Below are positions 1 to 44,052 of a stretch of 44,052 bases of DNA, piece after piece. Source of the stretch: a virus; the IMG/VR virus record IMGVR_UViG_3300048918_000073, positions 1 through 44,052 of that record, one strand, 5' to 3'. The first letter of the stretch is position 1; every line of letters starts with the position of its first letter. Under the pieces are notes generated by a model that saw only the letters and a program-made list of their open reading frames with translations, was not told the DNA's origin and did no database searches. Both the position numbers and the translations under genes were made by a program.

Positions 1-135
1 AGCAGCCCTCGCAGCAGCCCTCGCAGCAGCCCACGCAGCATCCCACGCAGTAGCCCTCGCAGCAGCCCACGCAGCATCCCCCGCAGCATCCCACGCAGCA
101 GCCCTAAGCTCCTCATCTCCTGTCTTGAGGTACTG
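1..135. repeat. Terminal overlap with 43918-44052
   Basis: Bases 10-135 are identical to 43927-44052; bases 5 and 9 differ. The overlap lies within one open reading frame, which closes correctly only if the ends are joined. It is therefore best read as a circular-assembly overlap, not a physical terminal repeat. The implied circle is 43,917 bp. Confidence 0.85.
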
Positions 136-443: not shown

Positions 444-567
444 TCTGTATTGTAAATAGGGAAATGAGGGTTTCTCCCTCCGCTTCGCCTCCATACTCCA
501 AACCATCTGTCATGTGCTTTTGGTGCCTCACTAGAGGCTCTAAGGACTGCGTGACCTACTAACCAGC

Positions 568-612
568 ACTGCAAATCCTTAAATCCCAGTTCGATTCTGG
601 GCGAGGCCTCCA
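568..612 (+). other. attP: attP core: 3' half of a tRNA-Cys(GCA) gene
   Basis: From 568 the sequence reads as a tRNA 3' half: anticodon loop CTGCAAA (GCA anticodon), 3' anticodon strand TCCTT, a perfect T-arm CCCAG-TTCGATT-CTGGG, the acceptor strand CGAGGCC, discriminator T and CCA at 610-612. The 5' half that should pair with it (acceptor GGCCTCG, D-arm) is missing upstream, so this is not a working tRNA. Tyrosine integrases commonly use such 3' tRNA segments, and an integrase gene lies about 0.8 kb away with one coding sequence between. Integration would restore an intact host tRNA. Confidence 0.82.
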
Positions 613-622
613 TCATTTCAAT

Positions 623-701
623 GGGTTAGCCTGTGGTTCATGTAGGTACTATGTGAAGATATGGAGGTGATTACCTCCTAGTTGCCTCCACAGGCTAACC
701 C
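623..701. promoter_or_regulatory. Nested inverted repeats beside attP
   Basis: GGGTTAGCCTGTGG (623-636) is perfectly inverted at 688-701. Inside it is a second hairpin, GGAGGT-gatt-ACCTCC (663-678). The heptamer GCCTCCA occurs three times, at 606-612, 684-690 and 705-711. No U-run follows on either strand, so a plain intrinsic terminator is unlikely. Integrase/excisionase arm binding or a structured transcript is more likely. Confidence 0.5.
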
Positions 702-720
702 TCTGCCTCCACTGGTCGCG

Positions 721-1377
721 TTATCGCGCGGCTCCTTCCTTGAGAGCGGCGAGGGCGGCTTGTTGCGCCGATACTATCGCTGTCACCGGGTTATCCGTGC
801 GCGTTCCGGTTGACGTAACGATTGGCTTGCGCCCTTCGTCATTCCAGAAGGCATCAATTGCTGAATTGAGGACGATTAGCGCCTCTCGCAGCTTCGCTTC
901 ACGCGCAATACCTTCGGCTACTCGCCGAGCCGTTGAGTCTTGTGCAAATTGAGCCTCTTTTAATTCCGCCTCGGCTTTCTCCGCCCGGGCAATGGCGGCG
1001 TCGCGCTCGGAAACCGTTTGACGGAACCAACGGCAGCTGACCGTCATCGACTTTTCTTTGCTGCGATGAGCTGGCCTGATACCCAAGCAAGCGCGCATTG
1101 CATCAAATTCTTCAAAGGTCATGTGAACAATGGCGCCGTCGCTTTCGTAATTCGTGGACGGGTTCAATTGGCCAGCCCAAGCGATTGACGCCCTCAGTTC
1201 CTCCAGTTCAGCGAGGAGGCGGGGAAGCGCGGTGGCCAATTGCTCGAACATGGCTTCCGCCTTCTCGTCATCAATAAGCGGGCCATAGCCATCTGAGCCG
1301 CTATATGGCAGGCCGTCTTTTGCCGCCTCGCACAGCCGCAGCAGTTCGGCCCTTTCATCGTCGGTGAGGTGGGTCAT
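721..1377 (-). CDS. Coiled-coil protein of unknown function between integrase and attP
   Basis: 218 aa. The ATG at 1377 follows the integrase TGA directly, with GGAG in the integrase tail acting as ribosome site, so the two are translationally linked. Residues 120-170 are a charged Ala/Glu/Lys/Arg heptad-like helix (SERDAAIARAEKAEAELKEA). The N-terminal 60 residues are also helical and acidic. No catalytic motif or membrane segment is visible. The position between int and attP is typical for accessory cargo. I do not recognise a family. Confidence 0.75.
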   Translation of the reverse strand: MTHLTDDERAELLRLCEAAKDGLPYSGSDGYGPLIDDEKAEAMFEQLATALPRLLAELEELRASIAWAGQLNPSTNYESDGAIVHMTFEEFDAMRACLGIRPAHRSKEKSMTVSCRWFRQTVSERDAAIARAEKAEAELKEAQFAQDSTARRVAEGIAREAKLREALIVLNSAIDAFWNDEGRKPIVTSTGTRTDNPVTAIVSAQQAALAALKEGAAR

Positions 1378-2391
1378 TCATTTATCTCCTCTAGTTAATG
1401 CCCCAGTGGCCTCTGCCAGGGTCTCCAGATCGGGATGTGTGTATCCCTTGGTCGTAGCCATTGATCGATGGCCTACCAAGTCCATAATGGTGGCTATGGG
1501 TACCTTCGCCTTGTTCAGCCTCGTGATTACCGTATGCCTCATGACGTGGGGAGTTACCCGGTGTGTGATCCCTAAGGCCTTCCTAGCCCTGTGGAGAGCC
1601 GAGTTGATTCTCCGGTAGGTAGGCCACCCAACGGTCGCCAAGGCCACTGCACGGGCCGCTAGGGATTCCTGGAGAGGCACCACTCGCTTGTCTCCGTTCT
1701 TGGTGCGTCCCTCCCAGTTGCCGATAGTCACAGAGCCTTCCTCCAGATTGAAGTCTGAAGGCTTCAGCTTGGTTAGCTCTCCGATACGCATGCCGGTAGT
1801 CAGTAGGAGGTCCATCACCACGGAGATGTCCGGGGAGCCTCTACCCGACAACCACTCCATGATGCGGGCGTCGTCCTCAGGGCTAATCGTGTCCTGCCTC
1901 GGCTCACCCTTCTTGAGGCTCTTCCAAGGGAACACAGGCTTACCCGCGATATGGTCCCGTTCGACTGCCCACTTGAGGGCCGCTGAGACGGTACATAAAT
2001 AACGATGGACTGTGGTGTCCCCCAGGCTCTTGGCCCTGAGGTCCTCGACCAGTTGGTCTAGCTGGGAGGTCCTGATAGACGCCACAGGCTTATCAAGGCC
2101 AAGGAGGTCCATACAGGCGTCGAAACGCTGTAGGCTCTGGGAGACGTCCTTGTGGTTCCTCCAGATGACCCTAGCGTCCTTCTTGAGGTCGCGCACTAGG
2201 TAGCCCCCTTGATGAGCCTGATGGGGCTGTACGAGGCCCTGTGGCGTTCCTAGAGCCAATGATAGCTCGATGGCTTTAGCTTCCTTGAAGTCGTGAGAGT
2301 ATTTCCTGTAGCGAGTTCCGTCGCGGACCACCTCAATCACCCACTGGCCAGTCGGCTCACCCTTGGCGTTCTTTTTGGCATATACGGACAT
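1378..2391 (-). CDS. int: Tyrosine site-specific recombinase (phage integrase)
   Basis: 337 aa from ATG 2391, chosen because GGAGAAAGG lies just upstream; a longer frame from TTG 2409 has no ribosome site. The N-terminal ~60 residues (VYAKKNAKGEPTGQWVIEVV) form an arm-binding type domain. A SAM-like core-binding domain follows. The catalytic domain has the first Arg in TTGMRIGELTKL, the HxxR box in PHVMRHTVITRL, LVGH followed by the Tyr nucleophile in KGYTH. It would join attP (568-612) to a tRNA-Cys gene of the host. Ends are complete and it looks functional. Confidence 0.95.
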   Translation of the reverse strand: MSVYAKKNAKGEPTGQWVIEVVRDGTRYRKYSHDFKEAKAIELSLALGTPQGLVQPHQAHQGGYLVRDLKKDARVIWRNHKDVSQSLQRFDACMDLLGLDKPVASIRTSQLDQLVEDLRAKSLGDTTVHRYLCTVSAALKWAVERDHIAGKPVFPWKSLKKGEPRQDTISPEDDARIMEWLSGRGSPDISVVMDLLLTTGMRIGELTKLKPSDFNLEEGSVTIGNWEGRTKNGDKRVVPLQESLAARAVALATVGWPTYRRINSALHRARKALGITHRVTPHVMRHTVITRLNKAKVPIATIMDLVGHRSMATTKGYTHPDLETLAEATGALTRGDK

Positions 2392-2416
2392 GACGGAACC
2401 TTTCTCCAATCGGTGA

Positions 2417-2594: not shown

Positions 2595-2975
2595 CTATGC
2601 CTCGCCACGCTCAATAATTTGAAGAACCTTATCGATCAACTTGCGACCCTTAGGCGTCAAGAAGTAACGCTGCTGGCGAAGGTCCACAGGGTCTTGCTGG
2701 CTATCTACCAGACCCAGGCCAGGGCCGCCTCCTCTGGTCTTCTTGCCGATCTCGAGGAGCGTCCTGGAAGCAACCGGCTGGATAACACCAATGTCCTTAG
2801 CGTAGGTCCCGGAACCATGGCCTGGCTTCATGGCGACTGCGAGGAGCGCCTGCGCGTAGGACGCCGGGAGCGTCGGTGAGACCTCACGGAGTACCTGGAG
2901 GACAGCAAAGAGACGGGAGAGTCTCCGCGAGCTGTCGTCATCAGGTGCGGCGAAGCGGTCTCGATGGTTGGACAT
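2595..2975 (-). CDS. MarR-like winged-helix protein, possible lysogeny regulator
   Basis: 126 aa from ATG 2975, the first ATG after the upstream stop that has a GGAAA site. The longer frame starting at 3038 overlaps the upstream gene. Residues 25-125 show helix-turn-helix spacing (TYAKDIGVIQPVASRTLLEI) followed by a wing and YFLTPKGRKLIDKVLQII, the usual end of a MarR-type wing and dimer helix. It is the only obvious DNA-binding regulator near the integrase, so it may act on the early or lysogeny promoters. A role as repressor is inference. Confidence 0.65.
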   Translation of the reverse strand: MSNHRDRFAAPDDDSSRRLSRLFAVLQVLREVSPTLPASYAQALLAVAMKPGHGSGTYAKDIGVIQPVASRTLLEIGKKTRGGGPGLGLVDSQQDPVDLRQQRYFLTPKGRKLIDKVLQIIERGEA

Positions 2976-3003
2976 GTGGGAATCATTTCCAGTGGCCCTG
3001 TGG

Positions 3004-3267
3004 TTAGATGGGTTTAACATAAAGGTCAGCCCCGTCAATTAGATCAAGGATGCGCCATGCGTCCTCTTCAGATACAAACATTACGCCTTTATCAGACAGT
3101 TGCCAAGTGTACTTCTCCGCCAAGTGGTATGCTTTCTTGGAAACTATTTGGAAAGCAGCTAGGCCTCCAGCGTCCCACAAGTACAAATCGGGAACAGACT
3201 CGCAGTGAAGCTGGGTACAGTCGGCGGTTTCCTGAGCGTCCTCAGGAGAGTTATGGTCCAATAGCAT
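3004..3267 (-). CDS. Conserved-looking small early protein
   Basis: 87 aa from ATG 3267, with AAGGAA 5 nt upstream. Mixed alpha/beta composition, acidic, two Cys near the N-terminus (DCTQLHC). No known motif. It lies in the minus-strand early cluster between a 57-aa gene and the MarR-like gene. The leader (3268-3411) folds into a long hairpin closed by CCTATGA/TCATAGG. Confidence 0.6.
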   Translation of the reverse strand: MLLDHNSPEDAQETADCTQLHCESVPDLYLWDAGGLAAFQIVSKKAYHLAEKYTWQLSDKGVMFVSEEDAWRILDLIDGADLYVKPI

Positions 3268-3589: not shown

Positions 3590-3898
3590 TTAGGCCTTAC
3601 GGTTCAAGAGGGTTTCGATGCGGTCCCACATCGCATCGGCCAGGGTGGAGGCGATGGCGATTTCGACGGTTACGTCCGAGGCGATGGCCGCATGATTATG
3701 GACGGGCGTCTCCTCCAGGTCGCTCACGAATTGCTTCGCTGCGGCAATGTCATCAAGCACGAAGTCCCAATAGATGCGGAACGACCTGATGTCGTCCAAA
3801 GCATCCCGATAGGTCACAAACCAGCGGAGGGCGGTTGCTGTGCGAGGCATCCATTGGAGAGCGTCAGCCTTGAAAGTTACGCTTTGCTTGTCAGTCAT
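3590..3898 (-). CDS. Small early protein of unknown function
   Basis: 102 aa from ATG 3898 with TAGGAG 6 nt upstream. Predicted mostly helical (DALDDIRSFRIYWDFVLDDI), no membrane segment or Cys. Its leader carries the third copy of the hairpin/TGTGG element at 3918-3961. Early promoter-proximal position suggests a host-interaction protein, but nothing in the sequence identifies the target. Confidence 0.6.
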   Translation of the reverse strand: MTDKQSVTFKADALQWMPRTATALRWFVTYRDALDDIRSFRIYWDFVLDDIAAAKQFVSDLEETPVHNHAAIASDVTVEIAIASTLADAMWDRIETLLNRKA

Positions 3899-4669: not shown

Positions 4670-4894
4670 CTAGCAGGCTATTAGTTCGTACTCATCCCAT
4701 AGTACAGCCAGCAGTGTAGCGTAGTCATCGTACAGTTCCGCATTATCATCGAGTTCTTCCCGGAAGTCTGTCGCCGCGTCGCCCTGGAGAAATACCTCTT
4801 GGGCTGTCTTTATGTTACAGAATGAGTACGCAAGACCACCTCCAAACGACGTAACACGCCACGCTGGCAGGTCGTGAATGATAGCTGACTTCAT
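4670..4894 (-). CDS. First gene of the leftward early operon, unknown
   Basis: 74 aa from ATG 4894 with GATGGGG upstream. Acidic C-terminus (DFREELDDNAELYDDYATLL). It lies closest to the divergent promoter region, the position held in T7 by anti-host proteins such as gp0.3, which is also small and acidic. There is no sequence evidence that it shares that function. Confidence 0.6.
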   Translation of the reverse strand: MKSAIIHDLPAWRVTSFGGGLAYSFCNIKTAQEVFLQGDAATDFREELDDNAELYDDYATLLAVLWDEYELIAC

Positions 4895-4929
4895 TGTGTG
4901 GCCCCATCTCGTTCGCCTCTTGTGATTAC

Positions 4930-9211: not shown

Positions 9212-10150
9212 ATGGGCGGTAGCTCTACGACCACCAAGTCTGACAGCGGCCCCTGGGCTGCTCAACAGCCGTACCTGATGAACCTGTTCGGAAACGCACA
9301 GAGCAACTACAACCAGAACATGGCTACCGGCCCTTATCAGGGAAATTACTACGCGGCTCCCCAGCAGGCCCAATATGACGCCTATGGTAATGCTATCAGT
9401 CAGGCTGGTGTGGCCCAAGGCGTCAATAGCAATATGATGTCTACTGGTCAGAACATAGCTGCCGAGGGTGCTGGCGGCGCGACTAATGCCCTTGGAAACC
9501 TCCAGAACTTCGCTAACACCAATCAGACCCAAAACACGATCAACTCAGCCCAACAGTACGCTGCTGGTGAAGACATCCCTGGCATGGTTAAAGCGGGCAT
9601 GGCTGCAGCTAACCGCAACGCCGCCGAGAGTGACATTCCGAATATCTATCGGGCTGCTGCTGCCTCTGGTGGTCTCAACAGCGACCGCGCTGCTTTGGCT
9701 CAGGGTGTGGTCGAGCGCGGCCTCGGTGAACAGGCTCAGAACCTCACGGCTCAGTACCAGAATCAGGCTTATCAAAATGGTCTGTCGAATGCCCAGCAGA
9801 CGAACGCTCAGGGCCTCCAGGCTTACAGCCAGCTTGGCTCGCTAGGTTCCGAATTGAACAACCTCGGGACTAACCAGCAGACCACGGCGATCAACAACCA
9901 GGGTGCGATTAACAACCAGCAGCAGGGCGCGGCGAATGGTCTTCAGGGTCTCGACCAGAACACCATCAATAACCTCCTGGCGCAGTATCAGGGCCAGCTA
10001 GGCTTTGGCACCGACCAGCTTACCGCCCTGAAGAACATCCTCGGTGGTAATTATGGCTCCCAGGATAACAAGACCACTCAGAACAACCCGAGTGCTCTCT
10101 CGACAATTGGCTCTCTCATCGGGGGCATCACTTCGCTTATCCCCAAGTAA
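9212..10150 (+). CDS. Internal virion / ejection protein, gp14-like position
   Basis: 312 aa from ATG 9212. Very rich in Gln, Asn, Ala and Gly (NNQGAINNQQQGAANGLQGL), low in charge, with a hydrophobic Gly/Ile C-terminus (STIGSLIGGITSLIPK) that could insert in a membrane. Such composition is typical of podoviral ejection proteins that form the outer-membrane part of the DNA channel. It opens the set of three ejection genes and is 12 bp from the next. Confidence 0.65.
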   Translation: MGGSSTTTKSDSGPWAAQQPYLMNLFGNAQSNYNQNMATGPYQGNYYAAPQQAQYDAYGNAISQAGVAQGVNSNMMSTGQNIAAEGAGGATNALGNLQNFANTNQTQNTINSAQQYAAGEDIPGMVKAGMAAANRNAAESDIPNIYRAAAASGGLNSDRAALAQGVVERGLGEQAQNLTAQYQNQAYQNGLSNAQQTNAQGLQAYSQLGSLGSELNNLGTNQQTTAINNQGAINNQQQGAANGLQGLDQNTINNLLAQYQGQLGFGTDQLTALKNILGGNYGSQDNKTTQNNPSALSTIGSLIGGITSLIPK

Positions 10151-29352: not shown

Positions 29353-31362
29353 TCAGCGAATCGGGCAAGCGCCTGTCGAACAGGTTTCCCCAATAAGTTC
29401 CTCAGAGCTACTGACGAGCTCCAAAGGCATCAGCCGAGCGACATAGGCGTCATGCACTGCCTTGGTGACGACCTCCTGAGGCAAATAGGGATACCCCAGA
29501 TCAGCTGCCGTCTTCGTCGGGTCCGCTCGGAACAGGAAGCTGACGCCCACATAGCTATCCCAGTGGTCATAAATCCAATCGACAATCGACGGGACCTCGC
29601 TAGGATCATAGCTGACGGTGATCGACGCATTGTGGTCAACATAGTGTTCCATCAGGAAACGATAACGCTCCAGCTGCTCGACTGCGGTCTCCAGATTGAC
29701 GTGGAGAACCTCTCCGCTGGCTGTAGTGACCTCCGAGAACTCGACGTCCTCCCAGGCCACAGGGAACGCAATAATGACAGCAGAGGCGTCCGTGGGAGCC
29801 GGAAATACCGTGTAGCCAGCCTCTCGGCACTTCTCGACAATCGGGTCATGGACGGAGAACTTCACATTGTTGATGATGTAGCGGCCCAGCGGCTTGTGAA
29901 GGCCCTCGGTGGTGTCCATGATCTTCGACAAGGTACCACTTGGCTTGACCGTGGTGACAGCCTTGGACCTCGGGAGACCCAACTCGTCGGCCATGTCATT
30001 GACGGCCTTCTTGGCGATGTTCTTGATTACCCGTAGACGCGTCCCGACATCCTGATATTCCCAGCGGACGATGCCCGTGAGACCGACGCCCGTGAGACGA
30101 AGGAACTCGTTGAGTTCATGCCAAGTGTCCTGAAGAACTCCGTCATGTAGATCGACACAGGTCTGCCGATAATTTGCTCGTGCAATGATGCGTATAGCTT
30201 CACATAAGCCGTCCCAATCGCCATTAAATTTTCCAACGTCAGTCTCCACCAAATTACAGAATGAGGAATCGCCCAGCAAGATTTCAGCGCAGGGATTCAC
30301 GCCACGGAACCAGGGAGCGCGCTTGAGAGCAGCTTGGCCGTTAATGAACCCCGGCTCGGACCCTCCTGCATCCACCATGGCCTGGAAGATGTCGGTGAGT
30401 TCGTCCTTGGACGGCTTGTGGTAGAAAATCAGCGAGTTGTTCGACTGCTCTCGCTGTGGATTGAGGAGCCAGTATTCCTTCTTGGCCCTCGCAAACTCAA
30501 CCCACTCAGGGTCGCCGTATGGAACCACAATGATCTCAGCGGAGCGGCGGCTTGAGAGCGTGGTGCCGAGCCAGTTGAGAACATCCAGGATGTCCATTCG
30601 AGTGAGCAGTTTACATGCCTTTTGGTTTAGGATCAAGGCAATCTTCTCCATCGCCTCTGCGATCAGAGCGTCTCCTGAGGAAATCCAGCCGTAACTCTTG
30701 AGGCGAGCGCCCGCAGGACGAATCTCAGAGAAGTCCAGGACGAGGAGGTCACAGGGCTTCTTGTTCGCCAGCAGCTTGCCGGGGACCTTCGCCCAGGCTT
30801 CAGCCGAGTCACCAACCCGGATAGTCCAGCGGACCTTCCGATTGCGGGTCTCGTCAAAGAAGTGATCGAAGGTCTCGACGTTGCCCTCAACGCCCTTCTC
30901 TTCCGGGTCAGTCTTGGGGCTCCTGATGATCTGAATCTTCAGGGGCTTCGTGAAGCCATTTAGAATCCCAACGACAGGCTCAGCGCCCACGCCGCAGCCC
31001 TGGAGGAGCAGCCAGAAGCAATCCACGACGTCGCGGATCGTTGACACGCGGGTGAACGAGCAGTTGAACTGAGAGGCCTCGCGGACCTTGGCGACGTCCG
31101 TCCCGCCCAACCAAAGGGTGCGACCGGAGGGGAGAGCCTTTCGGCGCAGCATCAGGAGCCGCAGCTGCTCCAGTTCGTATTCCTGGGTGATGTTCAGGGG
31201 CTTGCTCTGAGCGCGTTCCCAGAGCCATTTCTGATGGCCGATGACGCGGTCTGTGGTCTGCTCCCATGTTTCGAACTCCGTGGAGGAGCCATCGATTGGT
31301 CGGTTATATGTTCTCCGAACGATCACCTCTGCTCGCGTACTAAACGGGTTTTCTTTAGGCAT
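29353..31362 (-). CDS. nrdJ: Adenosylcobalamin-dependent (class II, monomeric) ribonucleotide reductase
   Basis: 669 aa from ATG 31362. Spacing matches the Lactobacillus leichmannii-type enzyme: redox pair C101 and C369, radical Cys C358 in NPCAEILL with E360 two residues on, PSGT motif, and C-terminal shuttle CSTGAC near the end. Reduces ribonucleoside triphosphates to deoxy forms with coenzyme B12. Supplies DNA precursors with the neighbouring MazG-like and DUF3310 genes and with ThyX. B12 need implies a host that makes or imports it. Marine podoviruses also carry this enzyme. Confidence 0.95.
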   Translation of the reverse strand: MPKENPFSTRAEVIVRRTYNRPIDGSSTEFETWEQTTDRVIGHQKWLWERAQSKPLNITQEYELEQLRLLMLRRKALPSGRTLWLGGTDVAKVREASQFNCSFTRVSTIRDVVDCFWLLLQGCGVGAEPVVGILNGFTKPLKIQIIRSPKTDPEEKGVEGNVETFDHFFDETRNRKVRWTIRVGDSAEAWAKVPGKLLANKKPCDLLVLDFSEIRPAGARLKSYGWISSGDALIAEAMEKIALILNQKACKLLTRMDILDVLNWLGTTLSSRRSAEIIVVPYGDPEWVEFARAKKEYWLLNPQREQSNNSLIFYHKPSKDELTDIFQAMVDAGGSEPGFINGQAALKRAPWFRGVNPCAEILLGDSSFCNLVETDVGKFNGDWDGLCEAIRIIARANYRQTCVDLHDGVLQDTWHELNEFLRLTGVGLTGIVRWEYQDVGTRLRVIKNIAKKAVNDMADELGLPRSKAVTTVKPSGTLSKIMDTTEGLHKPLGRYIINNVKFSVHDPIVEKCREAGYTVFPAPTDASAVIIAFPVAWEDVEFSEVTTASGEVLHVNLETAVEQLERYRFLMEHYVDHNASITVSYDPSEVPSIVDWIYDHWDSYVGVSFLFRADPTKTAADLGYPYLPQEVVTKAVHDAYVARLMPLELVSSSEELIGETCSTGACPIR

Positions 31363-39568: not shown

Positions 39569-39757
39569 TCAATGCCTAAATTGGTGCTTCTCGTGATATT
39601 CCTTCACGATATCCTCGCGGAATGTATCAACGTCGAGACCATGCGCCATGATGGCGACCTCGGCGTCCATCGGGAACGGATTGCCCTTGAGGGCCTCGGG
39701 GAGGAGGGTCACCTTCAGCCGGTATAGGCCCATTCCAGTGTAGTTAAGCGAACGCAT
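39569..39757 (-). CDS. Small protein after RNA polymerase
   Basis: 62 aa from ATG 39757, overlapping the end of the RNA polymerase frame by 14 nt. GLYRLKVTLLPEALKGNPFP followed by DAEVAIMAHGLDVDTFREDI. Soluble; not recognised. Lies between polymerase and SSB, where T7 has small genes 1.1-2. Confidence 0.6.
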   Translation of the reverse strand: MRSLNYTGMGLYRLKVTLLPEALKGNPFPMDAEVAIMAHGLDVDTFREDIVKEYHEKHQFRH

Positions 39758-42149
39758 ATTCAGCCTCTAGGATGTCGTTAATGTTGTAATCGCCCTTGTG
39801 AGGCAGCGGAGGCATCTTATGCCAATTGGTTTGCAGTTGTCCATGACTTTCTCGCCAAATGTCAAACAAGACGTCATTGTCGCGGTAGAGGGACCAGAAG
39901 GTCTCCCTAATAATCTCCCTGAATCTCCCCGCCTTGTTTGGATGGCACCCGAAGGAGTCATGAACCAGCGCGACGTCACGGATTCCTTCGTCCTTAGCCG
40001 CCAGGACCACCATCATCAGATGACAGGCGTCATAAGCGTGAACGAAACACGGGGCGATGCTGGAAGCCGCCTTCCGCTTGTTAATCCCTGGTAGTTCCCG
40101 CCACATGGACGGGGTGACTGTCTTCTTGACCCCCTTGTCGTGGAGCGTCAGGGATACCCGCACCGTGGTGTGGTTCGTGTAGTTGAGGACCACTGGGAAC
40201 CCTAAGGGCGTGTGCCAGACAACCGGCTTTCCTTCATGCGCCATGGTCCTTGCGATGTCCTGTAGGAACCCCATGGCCTCTGCTGGCTTATACACTGTCT
40301 GCTCGATGGCCCCATAGATGGTCTTGGCGAGGTACCGGGCAGCGAAGTATCCATTGTCAGGGCCGAAGGGATGCTCGTCGTACTTCCCCCGAAGCACCTG
40401 ATATTCGAGGGGCTTCATGGTGTCCTCAAGGTGCTGCTCCGACATGCCGTAAACCTTGGAGGAGTACGAGAAGGTCATGACGTTCCTCTTCACGAGGCTT
40501 CGGTTCACGCCGTAAGCAAGCGACCTCTGTGCAACATCGCGCGTTCGGCCTGCTGCCTCATTGTCCACTCCGGGGTCTCGAATATCTCTTTGAATAACTT
40601 CTTTAGCCAGATCGGCCACCACTTGGTAGACATCTTGCGGTTCTCCTAAGTTCGTGAGGTTGACAAGTTTCGCTGTATTCTCGTCTCGAGTCATCGCGCC
40701 AAGATGCTGTAGGCCACTACAAGAGCCATCAAAAGAAACAGGTAGTCGACAAGCATCGCTCGGATTGATGTGGTGGTCCACGAGAGCCATACACGCTGCA
40801 AGAAACATGAAGGGGCTGTCGGCTTCGGTCCACCAAATGTCGTCCTTGGGGCTGGTGGCGACACTGATGATCCGCTCCCAGTTTTCTTCAACCCACTTGA
40901 CGCGGTCATCGAAGGGCTTCTTTGAAACCTTCCCGAAGTCTCCACAGTTAGCGAGGTGGACCTGGAGCCAATACAGGCCGGACTCATCGAGAGGCTCTCC
41001 ATTGGAAAATTCGAATAATGACCTGACATAATCCTGCCTCTGGAAGTTGAAGAACGGTAGACCATACACTCGACCGCGATAGTCGAGGTTCATCGACGTG
41101 TAGAACGTGTCGTTACCTATCCACTCAACTGTCGACATGTCCTGAGCAAACACGAGGCGCTCCCCTAGGTAGCTCCGATTGAGTTCCTTGGTGGTGTTCA
41201 CATCCTTCATACGGACAATCTGTTCAGCCTTTGTCATGTTCTCCCATGGCTTCTCCATAGCAGGCATGGGGATATTGTCTCTAGGAGGCATACCGGGAAC
41301 GTCCAGACCTGTCTGGTAGGCCCACCGCACCACGTCCAGGATAGACGTATTGATGCGGTATGGAACGCTCTGGGCGGCATTAACGGCTTCAAGCACCTGA
41401 GCCATGCGGCCAGTCCTGATAGCCTCCTTGATGGTCCTCTGTGTCGTCTTGTCGTAGCTCCTAACAAGCTGCGACCAAAAGCCGTGGACCTGTATGCTGG
41501 AGGAGTCCCACTCAGCGGGGACCTCTTTGTGCGGGAGGTACACTGGATGCCTATTAATGAGTTGCTCCACAATAGCGTTGGAGACCTCCAGGGCCTCTTC
41601 AGTGATCGCCAGGTTGTGGTGGTCATCAATAGTGAACACATCACAGCTAAGCATGGCTTCCATTAGCCACCTGCCAGCCCTAGCCGACTCCTTGGAGGAC
41701 CAGGCCTTCCACGGAAATTTAGCCTTCTGAGCTAAGGACCTCAGGGCCTTCCGTCTGAAACCAATCTGCTTCCAGTTACGCTTGATGTCCTCCATGATCT
41801 TCTTGGTACGCTTGGCGTCCCACTGCTCCATCCCATGATTGAAGCACTCGAGCTCCAGCGTAAGGCCCATGTTGTGGACTGCCCGAGCAAATGTGAGCCC
41901 CTGCGCGACCGCAGAGATACCCACAGAGAGGCCCACCACGGCTATCAATTCATCTGATAGCTCCGAGACCTCAGAGCGATGCTCACGGGGCTTCAGGCTG
42001 GCTCGGTGGGTCCTCACGGCCTCTGCGGTGGCTGTCAGGTACGTCTCAGCAATCGCCAAGGCACCCGGCGTATCTCCCCAACCCATCGAGTCCGCTGTGC
42101 GCTTGGTGGTCTTGGCGAACCTATCTACAGTTAGCTGGGCGCTGTTCAT
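39744..42149 (-). CDS. Single-subunit T7-type RNA polymerase
   Basis: 801 aa from ATG 42149 with GGGAGA upstream. Catalytic residues line up with T7: D474 in SFDGSCSGLQH (T7 D537), R550/K554/Y562 in RSLVKRNVMTFSYSS (R627, K631, Y639), H704 in FVHAYDACHLM (H784), D731 in VHDSFG (D812). The C-terminus YAFA retains the FA foot. Transcribes phage genes from its own short promoters. About 80 residues shorter than T7, mainly at the N-terminus, so promoter recognition may differ. Confidence 0.97.
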   Translation of the reverse strand: MNSAQLTVDRFAKTTKRTADSMGWGDTPGALAIAETYLTATAEAVRTHRASLKPREHRSEVSELSDELIAVVGLSVGISAVAQGLTFARAVHNMGLTLELECFNHGMEQWDAKRTKKIMEDIKRNWKQIGFRRKALRSLAQKAKFPWKAWSSKESARAGRWLMEAMLSCDVFTIDDHHNLAITEEALEVSNAIVEQLINRHPVYLPHKEVPAEWDSSSIQVHGFWSQLVRSYDKTTQRTIKEAIRTGRMAQVLEAVNAAQSVPYRINTSILDVVRWAYQTGLDVPGMPPRDNIPMPAMEKPWENMTKAEQIVRMKDVNTTKELNRSYLGERLVFAQDMSTVEWIGNDTFYTSMNLDYRGRVYGLPFFNFQRQDYVRSLFEFSNGEPLDESGLYWLQVHLANCGDFGKVSKKPFDDRVKWVEENWERIISVATSPKDDIWWTEADSPFMFLAACMALVDHHINPSDACRLPVSFDGSCSGLQHLGAMTRDENTAKLVNLTNLGEPQDVYQVVADLAKEVIQRDIRDPGVDNEAAGRTRDVAQRSLAYGVNRSLVKRNVMTFSYSSKVYGMSEQHLEDTMKPLEYQVLRGKYDEHPFGPDNGYFAARYLAKTIYGAIEQTVYKPAEAMGFLQDIARTMAHEGKPVVWHTPLGFPVVLNYTNHTTVRVSLTLHDKGVKKTVTPSMWRELPGINKRKAASSIAPCFVHAYDACHLMMVVLAAKDEGIRDVALVHDSFGCHPNKAGRFREIIRETFWSLYRDNDVLFDIWRESHGQLQTNWHKMPPLPHKGDYNINDILEAEYAFA
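39818..39835 (-). promoter_or_regulatory. Candidate phage promoter inside the RNA polymerase gene
   Basis: Minus strand TGCAAACCAATTGGCATA, then AGATG. Fits the consensus though it also encodes polymerase residues LQTNWHK. It would drive the 62-aa, SSB and endonuclease genes. Confidence 0.5.
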
Positions 42150-43860: not shown

Positions 43861-44052
43861 TTAGGCCTTATGTGTGCAGAACATCTGAATGAATTTTACC
43901 TCCTGAGCAGCCCTCGCAGCATCCCCCGCAGCAGCCCTCGCAGCAGCCCACGCAGCATCCCACGCAGTAGCCCTCGCAGCAGCCCACGCAGCATCCCCCG
44001 CAGCATCCCACGCAGCAGCCCTAAGCTCCTCATCTCCTGTCTTGAGGTACTG
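43861..44052 (-). CDS. C-terminal part of the Imm5-like protein that starts at 396
   Basis: The minus-strand frame encodes QYLKTGDEEL, then Ala-rich repeats, then EVKFIQMFCTHKA and stop TAA at 43863-43861. The 5' side runs off the window and is completed by bases 1-396 once the terminal overlap is collapsed. The stop lies 6 nt before the ATG of the next gene (43854), so it is cotranscribed with the ThyX/RNA-polymerase cluster. At bases 43922 and 43926 this copy reads Gly-Asp where the window start reads Arg-Ala. Confidence 0.8.
   Translation of the reverse strand, partial: QYLKTGDEELRAAAWDAAGDAAWAAARATAWDAAWAAARAAAGDAARAAQEVKFIQMFCTHKA
43916..44023. repeat. 12-bp coding tandem repeat, about 9 units (also at 1-106)
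   Basis: Units follow CNCGCAGCAKCC with substitutions mostly at the second base and at the K position. On the minus strand each unit encodes four residues of the A-[AT]-[AW]-[WRGD] type, so the array is the Ala-rich helical tail of the Imm5-like protein. Units differ from each other, which argues against a recent slippage burst. The window start shows a slightly different unit order at its first 9 bases. Confidence 0.85.

What the first reader, a model, noticed from the sequence alone, without database searches (positions are those of the whole stretch)
568..612. attP carries the 3' half of tRNA-Cys(GCA)
A GCA anticodon loop, a perfect T-arm, an acceptor strand and CCA are present without a 5' half. 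Together with an integrase 0.8 kb away this predicts integration at the host tRNA-Cys gene and gives a handle on the host: its tRNA-Cys should end with this exact 45-base sequence.
Basis: partly seen in the sequence, partly recalled or inferred. Interest (0 to 1): 0.7.

Follow-up and report, generated by a model that had tools for sequence, protein, structure and literature searches.

The report
Phage integration site copying tRNA-Cys half
This T7-like virus of an unidentified alphaproteobacterium carries the last 45 bases of a cysteine tRNA gene next to its integrase gene, a classic docking site that would let it insert into the host's tRNA gene and rebuild the tRNA at the same time; related viruses use the same tRNA, two of them carrying the front half instead.

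Summary
Bases 568-612 are the 3' part of a tRNA-Cys(GCA) gene: nucleotide 31, anticodon loop CTGCAAA, variable loop, perfect T-arm, acceptor strand, CCA. There is no 5' half. Phage DNA lies on both sides, and an intact tyrosine integrase stops 766 bp away. It is best read as attP, with the crossover in the anticodon loop. In silico, joining the segment to an alphaproteobacterial tRNA-Cys 5' half gives a perfect tRNA-Cys.

An integrase-first search supports the reading. The nearest integrases (32-98% identity), from T7-like phages, sit beside a tRNA-Cys fragment, and the T-stem alleles differ by paired changes. One allele is identical to the tRNA-Cys of 18 of 199 sampled alphaproteobacterial genomes. 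Two relatives carry the 5' half instead, on the same crossover.

The host prediction is unproven. No held genome has the exact 45-mer; the closest is an SAR11 MAG (43/45), then Shinella (40/45). No integrated copy was found: no integrase match in 397 genomes of one order. In related T7-like cyanophages such sites mediate integration without stable lysogeny, so lifestyle stays open. This is a new member of a known kind; the 3'-to-5'-half switch within one integrase clade is the least ordinary part.

The parts
568..612 (+). attP identity block: tRNA-Cys(GCA) 3' part, nucleotide 31 to CCA
569..575 (+). Anticodon loop CTGCAAA; predicted 7-bp overlap where strand exchange occurs (inferred)
   Evidence: Left limit of tRNA identity in the window and sister phages falls at the 5' edge of this loop; anticodon-centred class of sites described in PMC4383910
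585..601 (+). T-arm, 5 perfect pairs CCCAG/CTGGG around TTCGATT
602..612 (+). Acceptor 3' strand CGAGGCC, discriminator T, CCA
531..547 (+). CTAGAGnnTCTAAGGAC, conserved left of the core in the window, L002 and L006; candidate integrase arm site or regulator site (inferred)
   Evidence: alignment
613..720 (.). Right attP arm on the integrase side; 96% identical to L002 over its first 100 bases; contains inverted repeat 623-636/688-701 and a 12-bp direct repeat 683-694/704-715 (arm sites inferred)
721..1377 (-). 218-aa hypothetical ORF between integrase and attP; ends shared with L002 but mosaic inside; absent in L006, where the stop-to-attP distance is about 0.1 kb
1378..2409 (-). Tyrosine integrase (ORF from TTG 2409; likely start ATG 2391); R202, K231, H282, R285, H308, Y317 (numbered from ATG) conserved in the family
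2595..3038 (-). Transcriptional regulator next to the integrase (PHROG 9665); similar ORFs precede the integrase in L002 and L028 (by inspection)
39744..42149 (-). T7-type single-subunit RNA polymerase, downstream of attP in the order regulator-int-attP-RNAP on the circular map

Best explanation
568-612 is the phage attachment site (attP) core of a T7-like alphaproteobacterial phage. Its tyrosine integrase recombines the site with the anticodon loop of the host tRNA-Cys(GCA) gene. The host 5' half is joined to the phage-borne 3' half, so a complete tRNA-Cys is regenerated at the junction next to the integrase gene; the displaced host 3' half marks the other end. Shown: the segment, its location between phage genes, the intact integrase, the regenerated tRNA in silico, and the association of this integrase clade with tRNA-Cys. 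Inferred: that integration occurs, the exact cut positions, the arm sites, the host, and whether stable lysogeny follows.
For: Perfect 3' tRNA half without a 5' half. Phage genes on both sides, and a near-exact 135-nt terminal overlap (2 mismatches) indicating a circular genome map, so this is attP and not a host junction. Tyrosine integrase with conserved catalytic residues. Rhizobiales-type 5' half plus 568-612 gives a fully paired tRNA-Cys by ARAGORN, while attP itself gives none. Sister phage L002 has the identical 45-mer with a 98%-identical integrase; L006 (51-53% integrase) has a different tRNA-Cys allele at the same place with paired T-stem changes. Integrase-first scan: L068, L069, L071, L072-L074 and L075 carry tRNA-Cys 3' halves 97-1351 bp past the integrase, antisense to it; L070 carries the 5' half; more distant integrases sit at other tRNAs or none was found. 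The clade holding all these integrases has support 96/95. The L072/L075 allele, from CTGCAAA to CCA, is exact in 18 of 199 sampled genomes of one alphaproteobacterial order. T7-like cyanophages with the same arrangement at tRNA-Leu integrate, and need both int and attP (PMC8776855).
Against: No genome holds the exact 45-mer attB, and no integrated copy or attL/attR was found. The one genome with the exact 32-nt core is low-GC SAR11, an unlikely host for a 55% GC phage. The clade also contains L079 and L080, where no tRNA-Cys fragment was found. The 4-sequence alignment behind the integrase scan included two members first found through their tRNA-Cys fragment, so the scan is not fully independent.
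Confidence: 0.93

Rival explanations
1. It is a functional attP, but the phage is essentially lytic: integration is rare and transient, as shown for T7-like cyanophages, so it marks no true lysogeny. (This is a rival about lifestyle and can hold together with the best explanation.)
For: PMC8776855: S-TIP37 and P-SSP7 integrate at tRNA-Leu with int and attP, but no stable lysogens were obtained. No prophage of this type in 397 sampled genomes. Full T7-like replication set.
Against: A transcriptional regulator next to int could serve lysogeny control; its function is untested. The true host genome is not in the held sets, so absence of prophages says little.
Confidence: 0.5
2. It is a relic: a tRNA piece acquired in an earlier integration and no longer used.
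For: No exact attB found in held genomes.
Against: Every pair of the T-stem and every acceptor position is intact; the 45-mer is identical in L002 while the DNA to its left has drifted to 58% identity; the integrase is intact and conserved.
Confidence: 0.04
3. It is a chance tRNA-like stretch or part of a broken phage tRNA gene once used for translation.
For: Phages do carry tRNA-Cys genes for translation, e.g. mycobacteriophages.
Against: 0 of 300 shuffles give the pattern; identical or allelic 3' halves recur at the same place in related phages, without a 5' half in the 3'-half carriers.
Confidence: 0.02

Closest known systems
tRNA-gene attachment sites of tyrosine-integrase phages and islands, anticodon-centred class with 3' fragment (Islander; PMC4383910)
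   Same: 3' tDNA fragment in attP, identity beginning at the anticodon loop, adjacent tyrosine integrase, regenerated tRNA on integration
   Different: Nothing in kind; the target is tRNA-Cys and the carrier is T7-like
T7-like cyanophages P-SSP7 and S-TIP37 with int and attP at tRNA-Leu (PMC8776855)
   Same: T7-like phage, attP downstream of the integrase gene, match to a host tRNA gene
   Different: tRNA-Cys instead of tRNA-Leu; other host phylum; exact host match not found here
Marine Autographiviridae of SAR11 and Roseobacter with integrase (e.g. HTVC119P; roseophages of PMC11092137)
   Same: T7-type RNAP plus tyrosine integrase; HTVC119P also has tRNA sequence beside int
   Different: HTVC119P's tRNA-like sequence is a tRNA-Leu(TAA) by inspection; its integrase is 25% identical to this one; the window's GC is 55%

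Membership tests
tRNA-targeted tyrosine-integrase attP (3' tDNA fragment, anticodon-loop class) | Phage DNA contains a terminal fragment of a tRNA gene, not a whole gene | tested here: met
tRNA-targeted tyrosine-integrase attP (3' tDNA fragment, anticodon-loop class) | Adjacent tyrosine recombinase with catalytic R-K-H-R-H-Y | tested here: met
tRNA-targeted tyrosine-integrase attP (3' tDNA fragment, anticodon-loop class) | Hybrid attL is a full tRNA of the same isoacceptor | tested here: met
   using a Rhizobiales-type 5' half; the SAR11 5' half leaves one acceptor mismatch
tRNA-targeted tyrosine-integrase attP (3' tDNA fragment, anticodon-loop class) | Identical attB in a host genome | tested here: inconclusive
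   Not found: best match 43/45 (L003), but the host may be absent from the sets searched. For the sister allele of L072/L075 it is met (18 of 199 genomes)
tRNA-targeted tyrosine-integrase attP (3' tDNA fragment, anticodon-loop class) | Integrated copy bounded by tRNA-Cys and its 3' fragment | tested here: inconclusive
   no integrase hit at E<=1e-30 in 397 genomes; no positive control in that search
T7-like phages (Autographiviridae in the broad sense) | T7-type single-subunit RNA polymerase | tested here: met
   PF00940, 4.5e-90; about 32% identity to T7-like phage RNAPs
T7-like phages (Autographiviridae in the broad sense) | T7-type primase-helicase, family A DNA polymerase, exonuclease, endonuclease | tested here: met

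The most novel reading that the evidence does not exclude
One clade of integrases from T7-like alphaproteobacterial phages is fixed on the anticodon arm of tRNA-Cys but has switched, at least once or twice, which half of the tRNA the phage carries and in which direction: the 3' half antisense to int (window, L002, L006, L071, L017 group, L028), the 5' half antisense to int (L070, closed genome), the 5' half sense to int (L078). That would make the symmetric anticodon stem-loop the constant and the carried half a free variable.
Probability: 0.6. Interest if true: 0.5.

Novelty: new member of a known kind. Interest (0 to 1): 0.36.

Why it matters
The site gives a testable integration locus and a 45-base host fingerprint for a virus known only as a sequence record. 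The family around it is consistent with integrase and tRNA target evolving together: T-stem alleles differ from phage to phage by paired changes, as expected if each phage tracks its own host's tRNA-Cys. The two 5'-half carriers offer a natural comparison for how phages change which half of a tRNA they must supply.

Tried and rejected
Exact 32-mer in viral and genome collections: one phage and one SAR11 MAG. First degenerate tRNA-Cys pattern had one base too many and found nothing; corrected. 45-mer with up to 3 mismatches in 385 Alphaproteobacteria: only the SAR11 MAG. Relaxed patterns found nothing closer. 16S searches of G285 to name its order failed; the order is inferred to be Rhizobiales/Hyphomicrobiales because Shinella and Sinorhizobium share the tRNA type. 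RNAP scan of IMG/VR by exact peptides gave nothing. HTVC119P looked like a tRNA-Cys match but its sequence is a tRNA-Leu by inspection. Rfam on the att region with a permissive threshold: nothing, so half a tRNA is not recognised by that model. Promoter scan upstream of the L070 5' half: no tRNA-strand site at threshold.

Full report
1. Observation. Bases 568-612 read ACTGCAAATCCTTAAATCCCAGTTCGATTCTGGGCGAGGCCTCCA. This is nucleotide 31 to CCA of a tRNA-Cys: loop CTGCAAA with anticodon GCA, stem strand TCCTT, four-base variable loop AAAT, perfect T-arm, acceptor strand CGAGGCC, T, CCA. No tool sees a complete tRNA. A loose pattern of anticodon loop, T-loop and CCA at tRNA spacing occurs once in the window and in none of 300 mononucleotide shuffles. 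Across 84,980 species-level genomes the 32-nt core occurs once, inside a full tRNA-Cys.

2. Setting. The window is a virus record. Its ends overlap by 135 nt with 2 mismatches inside an Ala-rich repeat gene, so the map is probably circular, about 43.9 kb. It encodes a T7-type RNA polymerase, T7-like primase-helicase, family A DNA polymerase, exonuclease, endonucleases, a thymidylate synthase and a B12-type ribonucleotide reductase. On the minus strand the order is regulator (2595-3038), integrase (1378-2409), 218-aa ORF (721-1377), attP, then across the record ends the Ala-rich gene, thymidylate synthase and RNA polymerase. Phage genes lie on both sides of the tRNA piece, so it is attP and not a host junction.

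3. Integrase. It belongs to Pfam Phage_integrase (4e-25) and PHROG 1. R202, K231, H282, R285, H308 and Y317 (numbered from ATG 2391) are invariant across four family members; assigning them to the catalytic set rests on general knowledge of tyrosine recombinases. In 50,697 named phage records the best-covering relatives are only about 25% identical.

4. Sister phages. L002 has a 98% identical integrase and the identical 45-mer. Identity to the window is 58% over 170 bases left of the core, 100% in the core and 96% over 100 bases to its right, so core, right arm and integrase appear to travel together. L006 (integrase 51-53%) has ACTGCAAATCTTCAAACCCGAGTTCGATTCTCGGCGAGGCCTCCA in the same place: another tRNA-Cys allele with paired T-stem changes. 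The three share CTAGAGnnTCTAAGGAC about 20 bases left of the core, a candidate arm site (inferred).

5. Integrase-first test. A scan with an alignment of four integrases tests the tRNA link from the protein side; two of the four had been found through their tRNA fragment, so the test is not fully independent. The best hits (32-99% identity) were inspected. L068, L069, L071, L072-L074 and L075 carry a tRNA-Cys 3' half 97-1351 bp past the integrase, antisense to it, with T-stems CCCAG/CTGGG, CCGAG/CTCGG, GGGGG/CCCTC and CCCGG/CCGGG. The CCCGG allele from CTGCAAA to CCA is exact in 18 of 199 sampled genomes of one alphaproteobacterial order, probably Rhizobiales because Shinella and Sinorhizobium have the same type. 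More distant integrases lie at other tRNAs, e.g. one with anticodon loop CTACGAA. All tRNA-Cys integrases above 30% identity fall in a clade with support 96/95, which also holds L078, L079 and L080. L010, a tRNA-Cys fragment carrier with a distant integrase, falls outside it, so tRNA-Cys has been targeted by more than one integrase lineage.

6. Half switching. L070 is a closed 44.5-kb genome (127-nt exact terminal overlap) with integrase 41% identical. Between integrase and RNA polymerase it carries the 5' half, GGCCTCGTGGCGGAATGGTTACGCAGAGGACTGCAAATC, exactly, and no 3' half was found in the record. L078 carries another 5' half, GGCCACGTGGCGGAGTGGTTACGCAACGGTCTGCAAAACCG, sense to the integrase, again between integrase and RNA polymerase; its polymerase gene reads on across the record ends by inspection. 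Both stop just past the anticodon loop, so the crossover point appears shared while the carried half differs. 5'-fragment islands are known but rare (159 of 3919 in Islander, PMC4383910).

7. Mechanism. Joining a Rhizobiales-type 5' half to 568-612 gives a 74-nt tRNA-Cys with every stem paired; attP itself gives nothing; the SAR11 5' half leaves one acceptor mismatch. Integration at the anticodon loop would therefore regenerate tRNA-Cys at the integrase-side end and leave the host's own 3' half at the far end. The 7-bp loop as overlap is inferred from where identity begins and from the anticodon-centred class of sites (PMC4383910).

8. Host and lifestyle. No held genome has the exact 45-mer. 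The nearest is a Pelagibacteraceae MAG, 43/45, GC 30% against 55% for the phage; Shinella has 40/45. The acceptor strand CGAGGCC and the family's other alleles point to an undersampled alphaproteobacterium, perhaps near Rhizobiales (inference). No integrated copy was found in 397 genomes of that order. T7-like cyanophages with int and attP at tRNA-Leu integrate yet make no stable lysogens (PMC8776855), so attP plus integrase does not by itself show a temperate life.

9. Verdict. The exact-host statement is unverified. In kind this is known; the family-level pattern, one integrase clade on one tRNA with the carried half switching, is the part worth keeping.

Noticed in passing
L070 (IMGVR_UViG_3300031251_000043) 3647-3685 minus: A related closed phage genome carries the exact 5' half of tRNA-Cys, not the 3' half, between integrase and RNA polymerase; the integrase ORF's last codons run into it.
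   Followed up: yes
L078 (IMGVR_UViG_3300031251_000041) about 4868-4908 plus: Another related T7-like phage carries a tRNA-Cys 5' half in sense orientation, about 20 bases after the integrase stop.
   Followed up: partly
L017 9699-10940 minus, attP 9806-9848: The integrase reading frame runs through the tRNA-Cys 3' half on the opposite strand, so integration would change the protein's C-terminus.
   Followed up: no
window 1-120 and 43906-44052: The record ends overlap by 135 nt (2 mismatches) inside an Ala-rich repeat gene whose repeat number differs from L002; probably a circular genome cut in the repeat.
   Followed up: partly
window 721-1377 minus: An accessory ORF sits between integrase and attP in the window; L002 has a mosaic version with two ORFs, and L006 has none, so this gap looks like a cargo slot.
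   Followed up: partly
window 542-550: AAGGACTGC resembles the host-type 5' anticodon strand and loop start, 26 bases left of the real core; in L002 and L006 the match ends at AAGGAC, so it may be chance within a conserved arm element.
   Followed up: no
window 29353-31362 minus: B12-dependent (class II) type ribonucleotide reductase in a T7-like phage with integrase; Pfam matches are weak.
   Followed up: no
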